A stretch of 64,000 bases of DNA, from the NCBI RefSeq assembly GCF_000172795.2, contig NZ_CP020947.1:1615001-1679000 (forward strand), given 5' to 3'. The notes under the pieces were generated by a model, which saw nothing but the letters and a program-made list of their open reading frames with translations, did no database searches and was not told where the DNA came from. Shown here piece after piece: positions 1 to 6,894 of this stretch. The DNA is from Rhizobium sp. CIAT894. GTDB taxonomy: Bacteria; Pseudomonadota; Alphaproteobacteria; Rhizobiales; Rhizobiaceae. The position numbers and the translations under genes are program-made. Each line of letters starts with the position of its first letter. The stretch's first letter is position 1.

Positions 1-169
1 CGGCGAAATCGGTGCCGCCGAGATAGCTGTCGAGATAGCGCCAGTCGCCGCTCTCATAACCGATATCATGGGAACCCGGCCGGCAGGGGGCATGCGGCAC
101 GCCGCCGCCGACATAGGTCGCAGCCTTCGCCTCCACGATGAATTCATCCAGCTTCACAATGTCGAGCAT
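1..169 (-). CDS. DUF5680 domain protein, 5' part only
   Basis: The first 56 codons of a minus-strand gene that runs off the window start. The start is the ATG at 169, preceded by GAGGAGAATGAG, a good ribosome binding site. The visible protein begins MLDIVKLDEFIVEAKAATYV and contains HAPCRPGSHDIGY and DWRYLDSYLGGTDFA, which I recognise as the N-terminus of DUF5680 proteins. This is a small domain of unknown function, found alone or fused to XRE-type DNA-binding domains. No catalytic role is known to me. A LexA-type box (219-233) lies 50 bp upstream, so SOS control is possible. The family call rests on memory of the sequence pattern; the rest of the gene cannot be seen. Confidence 0.75.
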   Translation of the reverse strand, partial: MLDIVKLDEFIVEAKAATYVGGGVPHAPCRPGSHDIGYESGDWRYLDSYLGGTDFA

Positions 170-218
170 CTCATTCTCCTCTCGGCCGGATGCTGGCAAA
201 TATGCTGGGGTATGTAAA

Positions 219-233
219 GAACATAAAGAGAAC
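219..233. promoter_or_regulatory. LexA (SOS) box 1, GAAC-N7-GAAC
   Basis: The sequence GAACATAAAGAGAAC is an exact GAAC-N7-GAAC, the alphaproteobacterial LexA operator. It lies 50 bp upstream of the DUF5680 start (minus strand) and 225 bp upstream of the small ORF at 458. I could not fit a convincing -35/-10 pair around it, so which gene it controls is inferred from distance. Confidence 0.65.
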
Positions 234-400
234 ATACGCCGGAATTCAGAAGACGATTTGGGCGGTGGCCTATCTGAACGGAATGGCGGATCCGTCGAAG
301 ATGGGTGGCTGCTGCCTATCGGATCGAGCGCAGGCCCCATGCGAATCGCCAAGCCCTTCCCGAGATTCTGCGAACACAAGAAAGGAGGAAAAGATTCCTG

Positions 401-429
401 TTGACAACAGAACATACATCGAACAAATT
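401..429 (+). promoter_or_regulatory. Candidate promoter of the 28-aa SOS peptide gene
   Basis: TTGACA (401-406) and CAAATT (424-429) are separated by 17 bp. The -35 is perfect and the -10 weak, as expected for a repressed promoter. The second LexA box occupies the spacer, and the start codon of the small gene is 28 bp further on. Confidence 0.6.
410..424. promoter_or_regulatory. LexA (SOS) box 2, GAAC-N7-GAAC, in promoter spacer
   Basis: GAACATACATCGAAC is a second exact GAAC-N7-GAAC site. It sits between the -35 and -10 elements of the promoter at 401-429, so bound LexA would block RNA polymerase. This makes the small gene at 458 a probable SOS gene. Confidence 0.75.
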
Positions 430-457
430 GAAAACATAACGAGTAAAGGAGAGCCAA

Positions 458-544
458 ATGACTGACATGATCCGTGATATCGCAGCATTCACCTCCATCG
501 CAATGTTCGTTGCCAGCTTCTCGCTGATCGTCATGGCGATCTAA
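458..544 (+). CDS. 28-aa putative SOS-induced membrane peptide
   Basis: The short frame opens with ATG at 458 after AAGGAG (7 nt spacing) and reads MTDMIRDIAAFTSIAMFVAS followed by FSLIVMAI, then TAA. An N-terminal charged stretch (Asp, Arg, Asp) precedes about 20 hydrophobic residues, enough for one membrane span. It has its own promoter with a LexA box in the spacer and is followed at once by a stem-loop (555-579), so it looks like a complete single-gene transcription unit. SOS-induced membrane peptides of this size are known: SidA (29 aa, Caulobacter, blocks division) and TisB (29 aa, E. coli, membrane depolarisation). Similarity here is in size, topology and regulation; I make no claim of sequence homology. 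Function is unknown. Confidence 0.7.
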   Translation: MTDMIRDIAAFTSIAMFVASFSLIVMAI

Positions 545-554
545 AGTTTTCAGG

Positions 555-579
555 GGACCGCATGGCTGTCATGCGGTCC
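555..579 (+). terminator. Stem-loop after the SOS peptide gene
   Basis: A perfect 10-bp inverted repeat, GGACCGCATG and CATGCGGTCC, with a 5-nt loop starts 10 bp after the stop codon. No T-run follows, so it may be a factor-assisted terminator or an mRNA-stabilising 3' end. Confidence 0.5.
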
Positions 580-661
580 GGACGAGGGACTTCTTCTGGA
601 CATCATCGCCTTCTATGCCGACAATGCGTCCGATTCATTCGGGTGATTGGGAAGGCATGCC

Positions 662-3600
662 ATGGCGGATACGGCAAAGGGTTCTACGGCTGAGGTGACC
701 GGCGGCACGCCGGGCTTCATCCACCTGAGGGTCCATTCCGCCTATTCGCTTCTCGAGGGCGCACTGCCGCTGAAGAAGATCCTCTACAAGGCGACCGGCG
801 ACAGCCAGCCGGCCATCGCCATTGCCGACACCAACAACCTGTTCATCGCCCTGGAATTTTCCCAGAAGGCGATGGACGAGGGCCTGCAGCCGATCATCGG
901 CTGCCAGGTCTCGATCGACATGGAAGACGGGTTGGAGACGGAAAAGCGCGGCGGCCAGCAGGCTCTGGTCAAGCTGCCGTCGATCGTTCTTCTAGCTGCC
1001 ACGGATGGCGGTTACGAACGGCTGGTCGATCTCGTCAGCCGCGCCTATCTCGGCGGTGAAAGCAACCAGGCCATTCATGTCAAAGCTTCCTGGCTGGCCG
1101 AGGCCGGCACGGAAGGGTTGATCGCCTTGACCGGCGCTCTGACCGGGCCGGTCGATGCGGCGATCAGGGACGGTCATACCGCCCAGGCGGAGGCCCGGCT
1201 GCTGATGTTGAAGCGTCTCTTCGGCGACCGGCTCTATGTCGAACTGCAGCGGCATGGCGCCTATGATAAGCGCCACGAGCAGAAGATCGTCGGGCTCGCC
1301 TATACCAATGATCTGCCGCTGGTTGCGACCAATGAGGCCTTCTTCCCGACAAGGGACGATTACGACGCCCATGATGCGCTGATGGCGGTCGCCCACAACG
1401 CCATCGTCTCCGACGACAGTCGTTTTCGCCTGACGCCGGACCATTATCTGAAGAGCCGGGCCGAGATGGCCAAGCTCTTCGCCGACCTGCCGGAAGCGCT
1501 GGAGAATACGATCGAGATCGCCAGGCGCTGCTCCTTCGTGCTGAAGACGCGCAAGCCGATCCTGCCGCGCTTCACCGGGGCGACCGACGATGCCGAGGAG
1601 GCCGAACGCGCCGAGGCGAGCGAATTGCGCCGCCAGGCGGTCGAAGGGCTCGACATGCGGCTTGCAACGCTCGGCATGTCGCCGGGTTACGAGGAAAAGG
1701 AATATCGCGAGCGGCTGGATTTCGAGCTCAGCGTCATCGAGCGCATGCGTTTTCCCGGCTACTTTCTGATCGTTGCCGACTTCATCAAATGGGCCAAACA
1801 GCATGACATTCCGGTCGGTCCGGGTCGCGGTTCGGGCGCAGGCTCGCTGGTCGCCTACGCCTTGACGATCACCGACGTCGATCCGCTGCGGTTTTCGCTG
1901 CTGTTCGAACGCTTCCTCAATCCCGAACGCGTCTCGATGCCGGACTTCGACATCGACTTCTGCCAGGACCGCCGCGAAGAGGTGATCCGCTACGTCCAGG
2001 CCAAATATGGTCGCGAGCAGGTGGCGCAGATCATCACCTTCGGTTCGCTGCAGGCGCGCGCAGCCCTTCGCGACGTCGGCCGCGTGCTGGAGATGCCCTA
2101 CGGTCAGGTCGACAAGATCTGCAAACTCGTGCCGAACAACCCGGCCAATCCGACGCCGCTCTCCAAAGCGATCGAGGAGGAGCCGAAGCTGCAGGAAGAG
2201 GCGGCCAAGGAACCGGTCGTTGCGCGCCTGCTCGACATCGCCCAGAAGATCGAGGGGCTTTACCGCCATGCCTCGACGCATGCCGCCGGCATCGTCATCG
2301 GCGACCGTCCGCTCTCCAAGCTCGTGCCGATGTATCGCGATCCGCGCTCCGACATGCCGGTCACCCAGTTCAACATGAAATGGGTGGAGCAGGCCGGCCT
2401 CGTCAAATTCGACTTCCTCGGCCTGAAGACACTGACGGTGCTGAAGGTCGCGGTCGATTTCGTCGCCAAGCGCGGCATCAATGTCGATCTCGCCGCCATT
2501 CCTCTCGACGACAAACCCACCTACGAGATGCTGTCGCGCGGCGAAACGGTCGGCGTGTTCCAGGTGGAAAGCGCCGGCATGCGCAAGGCGCTGATCGGCA
2601 TGAAGCCGGACTGCATCGAGGACATCATCGCGCTGGTGGCGCTCTATCGCCCAGGCCCGATGGAGAACATCCCGACCTACAATGCCCGCAAGCACGGTGA
2701 CGAGGAGCTGGAATCGATCCATCCGATGATCGACCATCTGCTCAAGGAAACCCAGGGCGTTATCGTCTATCAGGAACAGGTGATGCAGATCGCCCAGGTC
2801 CTGTCCGGCTATTCACTTGGTGAAGCCGACCTTCTGCGCCGCGCCATGGGCAAGAAGATCAAGGCCGAGATGGACCAGCAGCGCGAACGCTTCGTCGTCG
2901 GCGCCGTCAAGAACGGCGTCTCGAAGCCGCAGGCCGACAACATCTTCGAACTGCTGGCGAAGTTCGCCAATTACGGCTTCAACAAGTCGCATGCCGCCGC
3001 CTACGCCATCGTCTCCTACCAGACGGCCTATATGAAGGCGCATTATCCGGTCGAATTCCTCGCCGCCTCGATGACGCTCGACATGTCCAACACCGAAAAG
3101 GTCAATGATTTCCGCCAGGATGCCAAGCGCTTGGGCATCGAGGTGATCGCACCCTCGGTGCAGACCTCCTTCCGCCATTTCCAGACCGGCGACAACCGCA
3201 TCTACTACGCGCTCGCCGCCCTCAAAGGGGTGGGCGAATCCGCCGTCGACCACATCGTCGAGGTGCGTGGCGACAAGCCGTTTGCCGGCATCGAGGATTT
3301 CTGCCTGCGTATCGATCCGCGCCAGGTCAATCGCCGCGTGCTCGAAAGCCTGATCTTTGCCGGCGCCTTCGATTGTTTCGACATGGACCGCGCCCAGCTT
3401 GCCGCCGGTCTCGACCGCATTCTCGGTTATGCCCAGCGCGCCCAGGAGAACAAGCTGAGCGGCCAGTCGGACATTTTCGGCAGCACCCTGACGTCGGGGC
3501 CCGAAAAAATCTCCCTGCCGCCGTTTTCGCCCTGGCTCCCTTCGGAGCGGCTGCTCAAGGAATTCCAGGTGCTGGGCTTCTATCTCACCGCTCACCCGCT

Positions 3601-4159
3601 CGATTCCTACAACAACATCCTGCAGAAGATGCGGGTGCAGACATTTGCCGAGTTTTCCCAGGCGATCAAACAGGGTGCGGCCAATGCGCGCCTTGCCGGC
3701 ACCGTCATCTCCAAGCAGGAGCGCAAGACCCGCACCGGCAACAAGATGGGTATCATCGTCTTTTCGGATTCGTCCGGCCAGTTCGAAGCGGTGCTGTTTT
3801 CGGAAATGCTGAACCAGTATCGCGACATTCTGGAGTCGGGAAAATCCTTCGTGCTGACGGCGACCGGGGAGGAGCGGCCGGAAGGCATCGGCCTGCGTAT
3901 CCAGACGATCCAGTCGCTGGAGGAAAAGTCACTGCAGATGCAGAAGGCGCTACGCGTCTATATCAGAGATTCCGGGCCGCTGAAGATGGTCGCCGGCCAT
4001 CTGAACGCCAAGGGCGACGGCCTCGTTTCCTTCATCGTCATCAAGGAGGACGGCAAACGCGAGGTGGAAGTGGCGCTGTCGGAGAAATACCGCATCACCC
4101 CGGAGATTGCCGCTGCCCTTCGCGCCGCCCCCGGCGTCGTCGACGTCGAGCTTGTCTGA
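662..4159 (+). CDS. dnaE: DNA polymerase III subunit alpha
   Basis: The catalytic subunit of the replicative polymerase, 1165 residues from ATG 662. This start has GGAAGG upstream and is preferred to an in-frame TTG at 647. The order is an N-terminal PHP domain (HLRVHSAYSLLEGA near residue 24), the C-family polymerase palm and fingers, a helix-hairpin-helix region, and a C-terminal OB fold. The catalytic aspartate motif PDFDIDF is at about residues 427-433, and KFDFLGLKTL supplies the third acidic residue. The length matches DnaE1 (about 1160), the replicative form, better than the error-prone DnaE2, which is shorter and usually sits with imuA-imuB, absent here. The upstream SOS boxes belong to other genes; no LexA box adjoins dnaE. 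Confidence 0.97.
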   Translation: MADTAKGSTAEVTGGTPGFIHLRVHSAYSLLEGALPLKKILYKATGDSQPAIAIADTNNLFIALEFSQKAMDEGLQPIIGCQVSIDMEDGLETEKRGGQQALVKLPSIVLLAATDGGYERLVDLVSRAYLGGESNQAIHVKASWLAEAGTEGLIALTGALTGPVDAAIRDGHTAQAEARLLMLKRLFGDRLYVELQRHGAYDKRHEQKIVGLAYTNDLPLVATNEAFFPTRDDYDAHDALMAVAHNAIVSDDSRFRLTPDHYLKSRAEMAKLFADLPEALENTIEIARRCSFVLKTRKPILPRFTGATDDAEEAERAEASELRRQAVEGLDMRLATLGMSPGYEEKEYRERLDFELSVIERMRFPGYFLIVADFIKWAKQHDIPVGPGRGSGAGSLVAYALTITDVDPLRFSLLFERFLNPERVSMPDFDIDFCQDRREEVIRYVQAKYGREQVAQIITFGSLQARAALRDVGRVLEMPYGQVDKICKLVPNNPANPTPLSKAIEEEPKLQEEAAKEPVVARLLDIAQKIEGLYRHASTHAAGIVIGDRPLSKLVPMYRDPRSDMPVTQFNMKWVEQAGLVKFDFLGLKTLTVLKVAVDFVAKRGINVDLAAIPLDDKPTYEMLSRGETVGVFQVESAGMRKALIGMKPDCIEDIIALVALYRPGPMENIPTYNARKHGDEELESIHPMIDHLLKETQGVIVYQEQVMQIAQVLSGYSLGEADLLRRAMGKKIKAEMDQQRERFVVGAVKNGVSKPQADNIFELLAKFANYGFNKSHAAAYAIVSYQTAYMKAHYPVEFLAASMTLDMSNTEKVNDFRQDAKRLGIEVIAPSVQTSFRHFQTGDNRIYYALAALKGVGESAVDHIVEVRGDKPFAGIEDFCLRIDPRQVNRRVLESLIFAGAFDCFDMDRAQLAAGLDRILGYAQRAQENKLSGQSDIFGSTLTSGPEKISLPPFSPWLPSERLLKEFQVLGFYLTAHPLDSYNNILQKMRVQTFAEFSQAIKQGAANARLAGTVISKQERKTRTGNKMGIIVFSDSSGQFEAVLFSEMLNQYRDILESGKSFVLTATGEERPEGIGLRIQTIQSLEEKSLQMQKALRVYIRDSGPLKMVAGHLNAKGDGLVSFIVIKEDGKREVEVALSEKYRITPEIAAALRAAPGVVDVELV

Positions 4160-4197
4160 TAATTCGGGTTGATCGTGATCAGCCCAGGTGATCGTGA

Positions 4198-5454
4198 TCA
4201 CCCCCGGGTAATGGTGATGAAATCCGTGCCTTCGCCGGTTTCGCGGCCAAGGCCCGTATCGGAGATCGTCAGCGTCGAGCCGGGCGCGATCAGCGCGTCG
4301 ATCCTGCGGCGTGTTTCGTCGGGGATGGTGATGCGGCTGAGCGAACGGGCGATCGGCCTGCCCGTGACGATCGAGCTTTCCTGATTGCCGATCCCGAGCC
4401 GCTTCATCGTCTCGCGGGAGAGATTGTTCTCGAGCGTGATGCCGAGCCAGTCCGCCGTGCCGGCCTTTTCGTCGACGGCATGCAGCGTGAAGAAATGCGT
4501 GCCGAGTGCCAGGCCCGGATCGGCGATCGTTACCGGGGCTTCGAAGATCGGCTTGAAGGCCTGGCGCACCATGATGACGCCGTTCGGCGGCTCCCCCTTG
4601 CCGGTTGCGGCATAGACAGCCTTGAGCAGCGCGTCGGAAACCAGGCTCCTGTCGCCGGCAAATTCTGCCGGCCGCAGCGTCTTGAAAGCCTTGATCGCCT
4701 GCACGGTCGACGGCCCGAGCAATCCATCCGGATCGCCGGCGGAAAAGCCGAGCTGGTTGAGCAGGGCCTGGATGTCGATCACCGTCTCGCGCAGCGTGCG
4801 GCGGGTGATCAGCATGCTGATCGGCTCGGACGGCGGCTCGGCTTCGGGCGCTGCAATCGACGGATTTGCCGGCATCGGCATCGCCGCGGTATCGTTCATC
4901 GCCACCTGCACCGGTGTCCCGGCGCTGTCGGGCATCGAGGGCCGCAGCTCGACATCCGAAAGCAGCAGCATGGCTGCCGGCGCCTCGGGATGGAAAAGGG
5001 TCGGATGGTCGATCGGCTGCGGCACCACTTCGCCGTCGCTGATGATGACGGGGATGCCGGGCTCGGTCATCCCGTAGAGCATTTTTGCGAATGCGCCCGG
5101 CATGCGCACGCAGCCGTGCGAGGCCGGATAACGCGGCACGGAATTGGATTCGTGCAGCGCAATGCCCGACCAGGTCAGCCTCTGCATGAATGGCATCGGG
5201 GCGGCCGAATAGAGATTGGATTCGTGGTATTTCTGCTTTTCGAGCACCGAGAAGATGCCGCTCGGCGTCGTGTGCCCGTCCTTGCCGGTCGAGACCTTCG
5301 AGGTCGCGACGACCTCGGTGCCGTCATAGACCGCAAGCGACTGCTTGTCCTTCGAGACGATGATCTGCAGCGTGCGTGCATCCGCGGCGAGAGCAGGGTG
5401 CACGAGTGCGGTGGCCGACAGCAAGCCGAGGCCGAAGACAAGACGCGAGAACAT
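4198..5454 (-). CDS. L,D-transpeptidase (YkuD) with peptidoglycan-binding domain
   Basis: A 418-residue exported cell-wall enzyme. The start chosen is ATG 5454, giving a clean signal peptide (MFSRLVFGLGLLSATALVHP, Ala-x-Ala cleavage soon after); an in-frame GTG at 5487 would add 11 residues before it. The YkuD domain covers roughly residues 30-150 and carries the active-site pattern: LHESNSVPR followed by ASHGCVRM, with His, Ser-His-Gly-Cys and Arg in place. A peptidoglycan-binding repeat follows (IQALLNQLGFSAGDPDGLLG, near residue 230). The C-terminal third contains FFTLHAVDEKAGTADWLG and a segment predicted to pack on the catalytic fold. Such enzymes make 3-3 crosslinks or attach proteins to peptidoglycan. 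It converges with dnaE across 38 bp. Confidence 0.9.
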   Translation of the reverse strand: MFSRLVFGLGLLSATALVHPALAADARTLQIIVSKDKQSLAVYDGTEVVATSKVSTGKDGHTTPSGIFSVLEKQKYHESNLYSAAPMPFMQRLTWSGIALHESNSVPRYPASHGCVRMPGAFAKMLYGMTEPGIPVIISDGEVVPQPIDHPTLFHPEAPAAMLLLSDVELRPSMPDSAGTPVQVAMNDTAAMPMPANPSIAAPEAEPPSEPISMLITRRTLRETVIDIQALLNQLGFSAGDPDGLLGPSTVQAIKAFKTLRPAEFAGDRSLVSDALLKAVYAATGKGEPPNGVIMVRQAFKPIFEAPVTIADPGLALGTHFFTLHAVDEKAGTADWLGITLENNLSRETMKRLGIGNQESSIVTGRPIARSLSRITIPDETRRRIDALIAPGSTLTISDTGLGRETGEGTDFITITRG

Positions 5455-5546: not shown

Positions 5547-6842
5547 TTAGTGATCGCGCTTGCCGCTGCCGAAGGTGTAGCCGGTTTCGACCGTGTTCTT
5601 GCCGAACTTGTCGCGCAGCTTGTCCATTGCCGCTTCGGCCGCCGCCCGCCGGCCGGATTGTCGGTCGATGAGATCGGGCGGATCGGCGCGTCCGGCATCG
5701 CCGAGATCGGTCACGCCGATGCCGAGCAGGCGGAATTTGGTGCCGTCGGTCTCTTTTTCGAGAAGATCCAGCCCGGTGCGGAAGATCTTGTCGGCAAGCT
5801 GGGTCGGGTCTTCGAGCTTGCGGTTGCGCGTGCGCAGCTTGAAGTCGGCGGTTTTCATCTTCAGGACCACGGTGTGGCCGGCGATATCGTTTTTCTTCAG
5901 CCGCCAGGAGACCTTTTCGGAGAGGTTCCGCAGGATCGGCACCAGATCATCATACCGCGAGATGTCGTCGAAAAAGGTCGTCTCGGCCGACACGCTCTTG
6001 GCCGCATCGTTGAGATGCACTTCACGGTCGTCGATCCCGCGCGACAGCCGGGCGAGCCGCTGGCCGATGCTGCCGTAGCGGCGCATCAGGTCGTTTTCCT
6101 CCATCTGCTGCAATTGGCCGATGGTGCGGATGCCGTCCGCCTCGAGCGTCGCCGCGAACGCCTTGCCGACGCCCCAGATCGTGGTGACCGGACGCGGCGC
6201 CAGGAACTCCACCGCTTCCTCACGGCCGATGACCGAGAAACCGCGGGGCTTCTGCAGGTCGGAGGCAACCTTGGCGAGGAACTTGCAATAGGAAAGTCCG
6301 ACCGAGACGCTGATACCGATCTCTTTTTCGATGCGGCGGACGAATTTGGCAAGCGTGCGCGCCGGCGGATCGTGATGCAGCCTCTCGGTGCCGCCGAGTT
6401 CCAGGAAGGCTTCGTCGATCGACAGCGGCTGCACCAGCGGCGTCAGTTCCTGCATCAAGGCCCGCACCTGCCGCCCGACCCGGACATATTTCTCCATGTC
6501 GGGGCGGATGACGATCGCCTGCGGGCACGCCTCCAGCGCCTTAAACATCGGCATCGCCGAACGCACACCGTGGATGCGGGCGATATAGCAGGCGGTGGAG
6601 ACGACGCCGCGTTTGCCGCCGCCAATGATCACAGGCTTGTCGGCGAGTTCCGGATTGTCGCGTTTTTCCACAGCCGCGTAAAAGGCGTCGCAATCGATAT
6701 GCGCAAGCGTCAATGCGTAAAGTTCGCGATGGCGCACAAGGCGGGGGCTGCCGCAGGAAATGCAACGGCGCGCTTCGCCCTTCTGCTCGGCAAGGCAGTC
6801 GCGACAGAAGCCGGGTGTCTTGTCGGGCGCGGGTGTCATCAT
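5547..6842 (-). CDS. dinB: DNA polymerase IV (Y family) with N-terminal zinc-ribbon extension
   Basis: Translesion polymerase, 431 residues from ATG 6842. A longer frame from 6869 would place the LexA box and -10 element inside the coding sequence, so it is rejected. The Y-family core starts near residue 53: [13 protein letters not shown] (first metal Asp), AMPMFKA, and [11 protein letters not shown] (second catalytic Asp-Glu), then the thumb and little finger. The C-terminus is FGSGKRDH; no clear clamp-binding motif is visible there. The first 50 residues are an unusual extension with FCRDC and CISCG, two Cys-x2-Cys knuckles that should bind zinc. A promoter with a LexA box across its start site lies immediately upstream, making this an SOS gene. 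It diverges from a GNAT gene. Confidence 0.95.
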
Positions 6843-6844
6843 GA

Positions 6845-6859
6845 GAACAAAGATTGAAC
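6845..6859 (-). promoter_or_regulatory. LexA box of dinB
   Basis: GAACAAAGATTGAAC (plus strand) is an exact GAAC-N7-GAAC. It begins 3 bp upstream of the dinB ATG and lies just downstream of the -10 hexamer, so it covers the predicted transcription start. Confidence 0.8.
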
Positions 6860-6865
6860 GCCGGG

Positions 6866-6894
6866 ACATTACGCCTTAAGCTTGCGAGTCTCAA
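6866..6894 (-). promoter_or_regulatory. dinB promoter
   Basis: On the minus strand, TTGAGA (6894-6889) and TAATGT (6871-6866) are 17 bp apart, close to the sigma-70 consensus. The start site would fall around 6859, giving a leader of under 20 nt with no clear Shine-Dalgarno sequence. Confidence 0.65.

What the first reader, a model, noticed from the sequence alone, without database searches (positions are those of the whole stretch)
401..579. Unannotated 28-residue SOS-controlled membrane peptide with promoter, LexA box and stem-loop
A gene too short for most pipelines has its own promoter (TTGACA, 17-bp spacer), a perfect GAAC-N7-GAAC LexA box in the spacer, a strong ribosome binding site, a hydrophobic 28-residue product and an immediate 10-bp stem-loop. 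By size, topology and regulation it parallels Caulobacter SidA (division inhibitor) and E. coli TisB (membrane toxin), but no sequence homology is claimed. It may be an unrecorded SOS effector in rhizobia.
Basis: partly seen in the sequence, partly recalled or inferred. Interest (0 to 1): 0.8.

Follow-up and report, generated by a model that had tools for sequence, protein, structure and literature searches.

The report
Rhizobial SidA-like SOS division inhibitor
A 28-residue membrane peptide gene just upstream of the replicative DNA polymerase gene in rhizobia appears to be a relative of Caulobacter's DNA-damage cell-division inhibitor SidA, which suggests that this tiny checkpoint gene is widespread in alphaproteobacteria and not peculiar to Caulobacter.

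Summary
ORF 458-544 (28 aa, hydrophobic) has a ribosome binding site, a TTGACA -35 box, a perfect GAAC-N7-GAAC LexA box at 410-424 and a 10-bp hairpin. It ends 117 bases before dnaE1. It is a real gene: found in 60 of 60 same-genus genomes, under purifying selection (pN/pS 0.17), LexA box intact in 61 of 62 genus loci. In Caulobacter the 29-aa peptide that I identify as SidA also sits directly upstream of dnaE1 behind a LexA box. The same arrangement (box, about 50 nt, SD, 29-38 aa hydrophobic ORF, dnaE1) occurs in 24 of 48 other families of the order sampled; shuffled sequence gives 0. The peptides share an N-terminal [R/K][D/E]..A..S...F pattern (profile probability 97% to others of the order, 68% direct to Caulobacter). 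Most likely it is a LexA-repressed, FtsW-directed division inhibitor. Function is untested. Prior traces exist: an S. meliloti Ribo-seq study lists a translated 'sORF25' in the dnaE1 5'-UTR, and earlier work reports dnaE as LexA-regulated. No listing or passage I saw makes the SidA link.

The parts
401..406 (+). -35 hexamer TTGACA; the 17-bp spaced -10 is CAAATT (424-429), weak
   Evidence: TTGA[CAT] at this place in 57 of 57 Rhizobiaceae loci examined; not found by consensus scan
410..424 (+). LexA box GAACATACATCGAAC in the promoter spacer
   Evidence: perfect box in 61 of 62 genus loci and 52 of 57 loci of the mixed first set; same motif before own lexA
445..453 (+). ribosome binding site AAAGGAGAG
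   Evidence: RBS in 56 of 57 loci
458..544 (+). 28-aa single-segment hydrophobic peptide gene, SidA-like
555..579 (+). 10-bp stem, 5-nt loop hairpin after the stop codon, no T-run; kept in part of the genus only
662..4159 (+). dnaE1, replicative DNA polymerase III alpha subunit, the usual downstream neighbour (ATG at 662; the ORF list starts at TTG 647)
   Evidence: synteny

Best explanation
The 28-codon gene is the rhizobial member of the SidA family. LexA bound to 410-424 blocks the promoter (inferred from the operator). After DNA damage RecA-driven LexA cleavage frees it, the peptide is made and inserts as one helix in the inner membrane (inferred from composition), where it holds the FtsW/FtsI/FtsN complex inactive so that septation stops until LexA returns (inferred from Caulobacter SidA). 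Being directly upstream of dnaE1, and probably partly cotranscribed with it (inferred), it links division arrest to supply of the replicative polymerase. Shown here: the frame, its selection, the conserved operator, the synteny and the sequence pattern. Not shown: expression, localisation, target and phenotype.
For: Frame under purifying selection: genus pN/pS 0.167, pN<pS in 1069 of 1081 pairs, all 62 genus loci held; other Rhizobiaceae 0.298, 300 of 300 pairs, 25 best-scoring loci. A whole-genome search blind to place puts 49 of 56 printed best hits in other Rhizobiaceae genomes just upstream of dnaE1, median gap 183 nt. Upstream of dnaE1, LexA box + SD + hydrophobic small ORF in 24 of 48 other families of the order (one genome each), 7 of 13 further loci of the order and 6 of 68 families of other orders, with 0 in 50 dinucleotide shuffles of each set. 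Caulobacter vibrioides (G911, recognised by a 100% match to recalled PopZ) has [29 protein letters not shown], 29 aa, behind GAACATCTTGTGAAC and 35 nt before dnaE1. Published SidA is a 29-aa inner membrane protein, induced by LexA cleavage, that interacts with FtsW (PMC4211646, passages); dnaE1 is CC1926 and sidA is CCNA_02004. Rhizobiaceae against Caulobacter-group columns peak at offset 0: 2 of 20000 column permutations score as high, 36 of 20000 when N-terminus and helix are shuffled apart; hhalign 68% direct, 97% to other families of the order, 84% from those to Caulobacter.
Against: The window peptide alone shares only 6 of 28 residues with the C. vibrioides peptide (292 of 20000 shuffles as good), and the Rhizobiaceae profile finds nothing convincing elsewhere by sequence alone (best E 0.0045 apart from the own genome, 385 genomes). 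Rhizobiaceae lack the tryptophan that 20 of 24 peptides of the other families carry in their second half. By the strict rule 24 of 48 order families, 62 of 68 other families, all 3 Mesorhizobium and both Brevundimonas loci lack the arrangement. The SidA sequence itself was not seen in print. No functional data in any rhizobium.
Confidence: 0.72

Rival explanations
1. It is an upstream ORF or leader: translation of the short frame, with the hairpin after it, tunes expression of dnaE1, and the peptide itself does nothing.
For: The S. meliloti authors suggest that sORFs in 5'-UTRs, sORF25 before dnaE1 among them, could be uORFs (PMC10117765, passage). It lies in the dnaE1 leader, with a stable hairpin between in the window. 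dnaE was reported as LexA-regulated in Caulobacter (PMC3323433, section 8).
Against: Amino acids, not just the frame, are conserved. The gap to dnaE1 varies from 95 to 690 nt. The hairpin is kept in only 30 of 62 genus loci. Hydrophobic composition and N-terminal pattern recur across families.
Confidence: 0.12
2. It is an SOS-induced membrane peptide toxin like TisB or DinQ that depolarises the membrane to give persisters.
For: Size, single hydrophobic segment and LexA control are alike; TisB features are recalled, DinQ's are from a search listing (PMC3567139).
Against: No Rfam family in window 1-5000 at gathering threshold. Fixed place in 60 of 60 same-genus genomes and SidA-like pattern fit a housekeeping checkpoint better.
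Confidence: 0.1
3. The peptide is a SidA-position gene but targets another membrane partner (for instance the polar growth machinery of this order) rather than FtsW.
For: The C-terminal half is not conserved between Rhizobiaceae and Caulobacter, and the order grows from the pole (start of abstract of PMC7327166).
Against: The shared N-terminal half, place and regulation argue for the same partner; no direct test.
Confidence: 0.2

Closest known systems
SidA of Caulobacter crescentus/vibrioides
   Same: 29 against 28 aa, one hydrophobic segment, LexA box starting 64 against 48 nt before ATG, directly upstream of dnaE1, shared R6-[D/E]7, A10, S13, F17 in ungapped register
   Different: Rhizobiaceae lack W19 and the MMC segment; gap to dnaE1 117 nt with a hairpin instead of 35 nt; no functional data. 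Identification of the Caulobacter peptide as SidA is mine (size, operator, neighbour)
S. meliloti sORF25 (Ribo-seq, PMC10117765, passages)
   Same: Translated unannotated sORF in the 5'-UTR of dnaE1 of a Rhizobiaceae member; very probably the same gene
   Different: Its sequence was not seen (supplement not open to me); the paper suggests a uORF and has 0 occurrences of SOS, LexA or SidA in its main text
LexA-regulated dnaE of Alphaproteobacteria (PMC3323433, passages and section 8)
   Same: LexA control reported for dnaE in Caulobacter
   Different: Credits the control to dnaE; no small gene mentioned in what I read
DidA of Caulobacter
   Same: Small damage-induced membrane inhibitor acting on the FtsW/I/N step
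   Different: 71 aa, SOS-independent, induced by DriD (PMC4211646)
TisB of E. coli
   Same: SOS-induced small membrane peptide (recalled)
   Different: Toxin with antisense RNA control (recalled); no link in place

Membership tests
SidA | about 29 aa, single hydrophobic segment | tested here: met
   28 aa, maximum 15-residue hydropathy 2.59; membrane location itself not tested
SidA | LexA operator in the promoter | tested here: met
   perfect box 410-424, kept in 61 of 62 genus loci; own lexA carries the same motif; binding not tested
SidA | directly upstream of dnaE1 | tested here: met
   window; 49 of 56 other Rhizobiaceae genomes; C. vibrioides L335
SidA | sequence similarity to SidA | tested here: met
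   modest: permutation 2 of 20000 and 36 of 20000; hhalign 68% direct, 97% and 84% through other families; single pair 6 of 28 identical, weak
SidA | conserved W and C-terminal half | tested here: not met
   column 19 is W in 6 of 6 Caulobacter-group peptides, A/G/S/T in 24 of 24 Rhizobiaceae ones. Not known to me to be needed for SidA function, so not taken as defining
SidA | SOS-induced, blocks division through FtsW/FtsN | not testable with these tools
   no expression or phenotype data
TisB/DinQ-type toxin | antisense or regulatory RNA antitoxin | tested here: inconclusive
   no Rfam family in window 1-5000; an undescribed RNA is not excluded
uORF of dnaE1 | function through translation, peptide sequence free to drift | tested here: not met
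   pN/pS 0.167 in the genus, 0.298 in other Rhizobiaceae

The most novel reading that the evidence does not exclude
SidA is not a Caulobacter speciality but an ancestral alphaproteobacterial checkpoint built into one SOS unit with the replicative polymerase gene, sidA-dnaE1: a single LexA promoter stops division through FtsW and supports resynthesis of the replicase. The LexA control credited to dnaE, and the S. meliloti 'uORF' sORF25, are both this gene.
Probability: 0.5. Interest if true: 0.75.

Novelty: new member of a known kind. Interest (0 to 1): 0.64.

Why it matters
In the papers I saw, nothing says how rhizobia and their relatives stop dividing after DNA damage; a single gene with a fixed address upstream of dnaE1 makes that testable by one deletion. 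It would spread SidA from one genus to much of a class, reassign LexA control credited to dnaE, and give a function to a Ribo-seq sORF. It also shows that synteny plus operator can recover families of genes too short for sequence search.

Tried and rejected
Profile search of 385 class genomes with the Rhizobiaceae alignment found nothing convincing outside the family; looking upstream of dnaE1 did. Pfam and NCBIfam gave 0 families for 16 members. The terminator reading of the hairpin was dropped, and my first impression that it is conserved throughout the genus was wrong: one search aligned 21 chosen rows, while one search finds a perfect stem in 30 of 62. Searches of papers for the Caulobacter peptide, its DNA and its LexA box found 0 papers. 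For a SidA link in other orders, searches gave none among the listed papers (20 of 354, 20 of 39, 15 of 241 and 5 of 5 listed). PMC2245857 and PMC4167512 (passages) gave nothing relevant. The original SidA paper and the Caulobacter SOS regulon paper are not held.

Limits and choices. One search's strict rule misses real members: C. hibisci, Caulobacter sp. D5 and AP07 have the peptide but GAAT in the second half-site (L300, L298, L325), so they count as absent; BK020 also counts as absent and its box was not inspected. L381 and L385 have the peptide without a perfect box. Of the 48 order families, 9 had several loci in hand and I chose the representative after a first pass; the alternates are among the 13 extra. 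Of 110 class genomes with a DnaE match I looked at 68 outside the order: the best-scoring loci plus larger genomes, not all; one (L079) had only 144 nt upstream. The 28 Rhizobiaceae loci are those with the best dnaE match. The first pN/pS used best-scoring loci, which biases it low, so I fetched all other genus hits and redid it. The 25 other Rhizobiaceae loci remain best-scoring ones.

Full report
What is there. Between a divergent DUF5680 gene (start 169, minus strand) and dnaE1 (ATG 662) lies a 28-codon frame at 458-544, with TTGACA 401-406, LexA box 410-424, RBS 445-453 and a hairpin 555-579. The -10 is weak (CAAATT) and a consensus scan does not call the promoter.

Is it a gene. The peptide was found in 60 of 60 same-genus genomes and in 1 of 40 genomes from other families of the order, and in 166 of 297 genomes of the family at E<=10, 65 of 109 genera (the weak tail needs context). 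Over all 62 genus loci held (47 distinct) pooled pN/pS is 0.167, with pN<pS in 1069 of 1081 pairs, and 61 of 62 have a perfect LexA box within 80 nt. Over 25 best-scoring loci of other Rhizobiaceae pN/pS is 0.298, 300 of 300 pairs. In the first mixed set of 57 loci the box is perfect in 52, TTGA[CAT] stands at the -35 place in 57, an RBS in 56, and the -35-to-box offset is 9 nt in 48 of 52. The genome's lexA has the same operator starting 61 nt before its start codon. The hairpin is less general: a perfect stem of 7 or more pairs in 30 of 62 genus loci and 2 of 25 others.

Context is more constant than sequence. For 56 genomes of other Rhizobiaceae whose best whole-genome hit was printed (E up to about 0.2), 49 hits lie on the same strand just upstream of dnaE1 (gap 95-690 nt, median 183), though the search knew nothing of place; 7 lie elsewhere. 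So even weak matches are mostly true.

Beyond the family. I took the region upstream of dnaE1 and asked for a GAACN7GAAC box 25-80 nt before the ATG of a 24-60 aa ORF with a hydrophobic segment and an SD, without any sequence motif. Results: 24 of 48 other families of the order, one genome each; 7 of 13 further loci of the order; 6 of 68 families of other orders; 24 of 28 Rhizobiaceae loci; 17 of 33 named or recognised genomes. Fifty dinucleotide shuffles of each set gave 0. Examples: MSMLIRDLAALAALASFVAMITLWSELIAHVV (L160), MTFFARDVAAFGSLVIFVATIAVWGEVLFAVH (L177), Devosia MLSFIKDFAAFVTLGAFTIGSLTWFDILSRLA (L283). The pattern [R/K][D/E]..A..S...F, usually with a later W (20 of 24), recurs although it was not selected for. 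The Rhizobiaceae peptides are the 28-aa, W-less form (W in 0 of 24). Mesorhizobium (3 of 3 loci) and Brevundimonas (2 of 2) had none by this rule.

Caulobacter. Four named Caulobacter genomes and relatives were reached through a CtrA scan and a DnaE search. All four carry a 29-aa peptide beginning MVRIARESLALVSV upstream of dnaE1, and 60 of 61 sampled genomes of that genus hold it. G911, which matches recalled C. vibrioides PopZ at 100%, has [29 protein letters not shown], its ATG 64 nt after the start of GAACATCTTGTGAAC and its stop 35 nt before the dnaE1 ATG. In print SidA is a 29-aa inner membrane protein, induced by LexA cleavage, that inhibits division through FtsW (PMC4211646, passages); sidA is CCNA_02004 (PMC10769358, passage) and dnaE1 is CC1926 (PMC1839093, passage). 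That the neighbouring tag CC1927 belongs to sidA is recalled.

Sequence test. The column-by-column BLOSUM62 score of 24 Rhizobiaceae against 6 Caulobacter/Phenylobacterium peptides peaks at offset 0. Permuting columns reaches it in 2 of 20000 trials, or 36 of 20000 when the N-terminus and the helix are shuffled apart; allowing every offset, 1 of 2000. hhalign gives 68% direct, 97% Rhizobiaceae to the other families and 84% from those to Caulobacter. The single pair (6 of 28 identities, 292 of 20000 shuffles) would not suffice alone, and a profile search by sequence alone does not reach Caulobacter. Homology rests on place, operator, size and profile together.

Mechanism. LexA repression, damage-induced synthesis, insertion in the inner membrane and arrest of the FtsW/I/N step, as for SidA, is the best-supported account; operator, frame and family are shown, the rest is inferred. 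Rivals are a dnaE1 uORF (suggested for S. meliloti sORF25, PMC10117765, passages), a TisB-like toxin and a different membrane partner. Selection on the amino acids and the variable distance to dnaE1 speak against the uORF.

Prior art. PMC3323433 (passages and section 8) notes that dnaE was reported as LexA-regulated in Caulobacter; what I read does not mention a small gene. PMC10117765 reports sORF25. PMC4117421 (passages) uses sidA overexpression as a positive control in an assay for motility and division defects. PMC12700426, PMC13384398 and PMC9578287 (passages) treat SidA in Caulobacter only. Searches listed no paper whose title, abstract start or passages read link SidA to rhizobia or to a dnaE1-linked family; the lists are capped and the library lacks the original SidA paper.

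Verdict. Function remains to be tested.

Noticed in passing
219-233: A second LexA-like box (GAACATAAAGAGAAC) lies before the divergent DUF5680 gene (start 169, minus strand). A perfect box occurs between -330 and -100 from the peptide ATG in 22 of 32 genus loci examined, so this DUF5680 protein may be another SOS gene.
   Followed up: partly
5547-6869, box 6845-6859: A DinB/Pol IV-like gene on the minus strand has a GAACAAAGATTGAAC box inside the N-terminus of its longest listed ORF; a later methionine pair just after the box may be the true start. The DinB name is from reading the protein, not from a search.
   Followed up: no
L033, L034, L036, L037, L042, L049, L050, L053, L056 upstream of the peptide: These Rhizobiaceae loci have three GAAC half-sites spaced 11 nt apart, that is two overlapping LexA boxes, which may mean cooperative or tighter repression.
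   Followed up: no
L271, L272, L275 (Mesorhizobium), L293, L294 (Brevundimonas): No SidA-like ORF passes the rule upstream of dnaE1. B. poindexterae (L294) still has two LexA boxes there, so its small ORF may be divergent or lost.
   Followed up: no
L279, L280, L285, L286 (Methylobacterium, Methylorubrum): These peptides have a different N-terminus without the R-D motif (for example MLKRMILTGAVEFMAFGLL in L280), but the same box, spacing and W.
   Followed up: no
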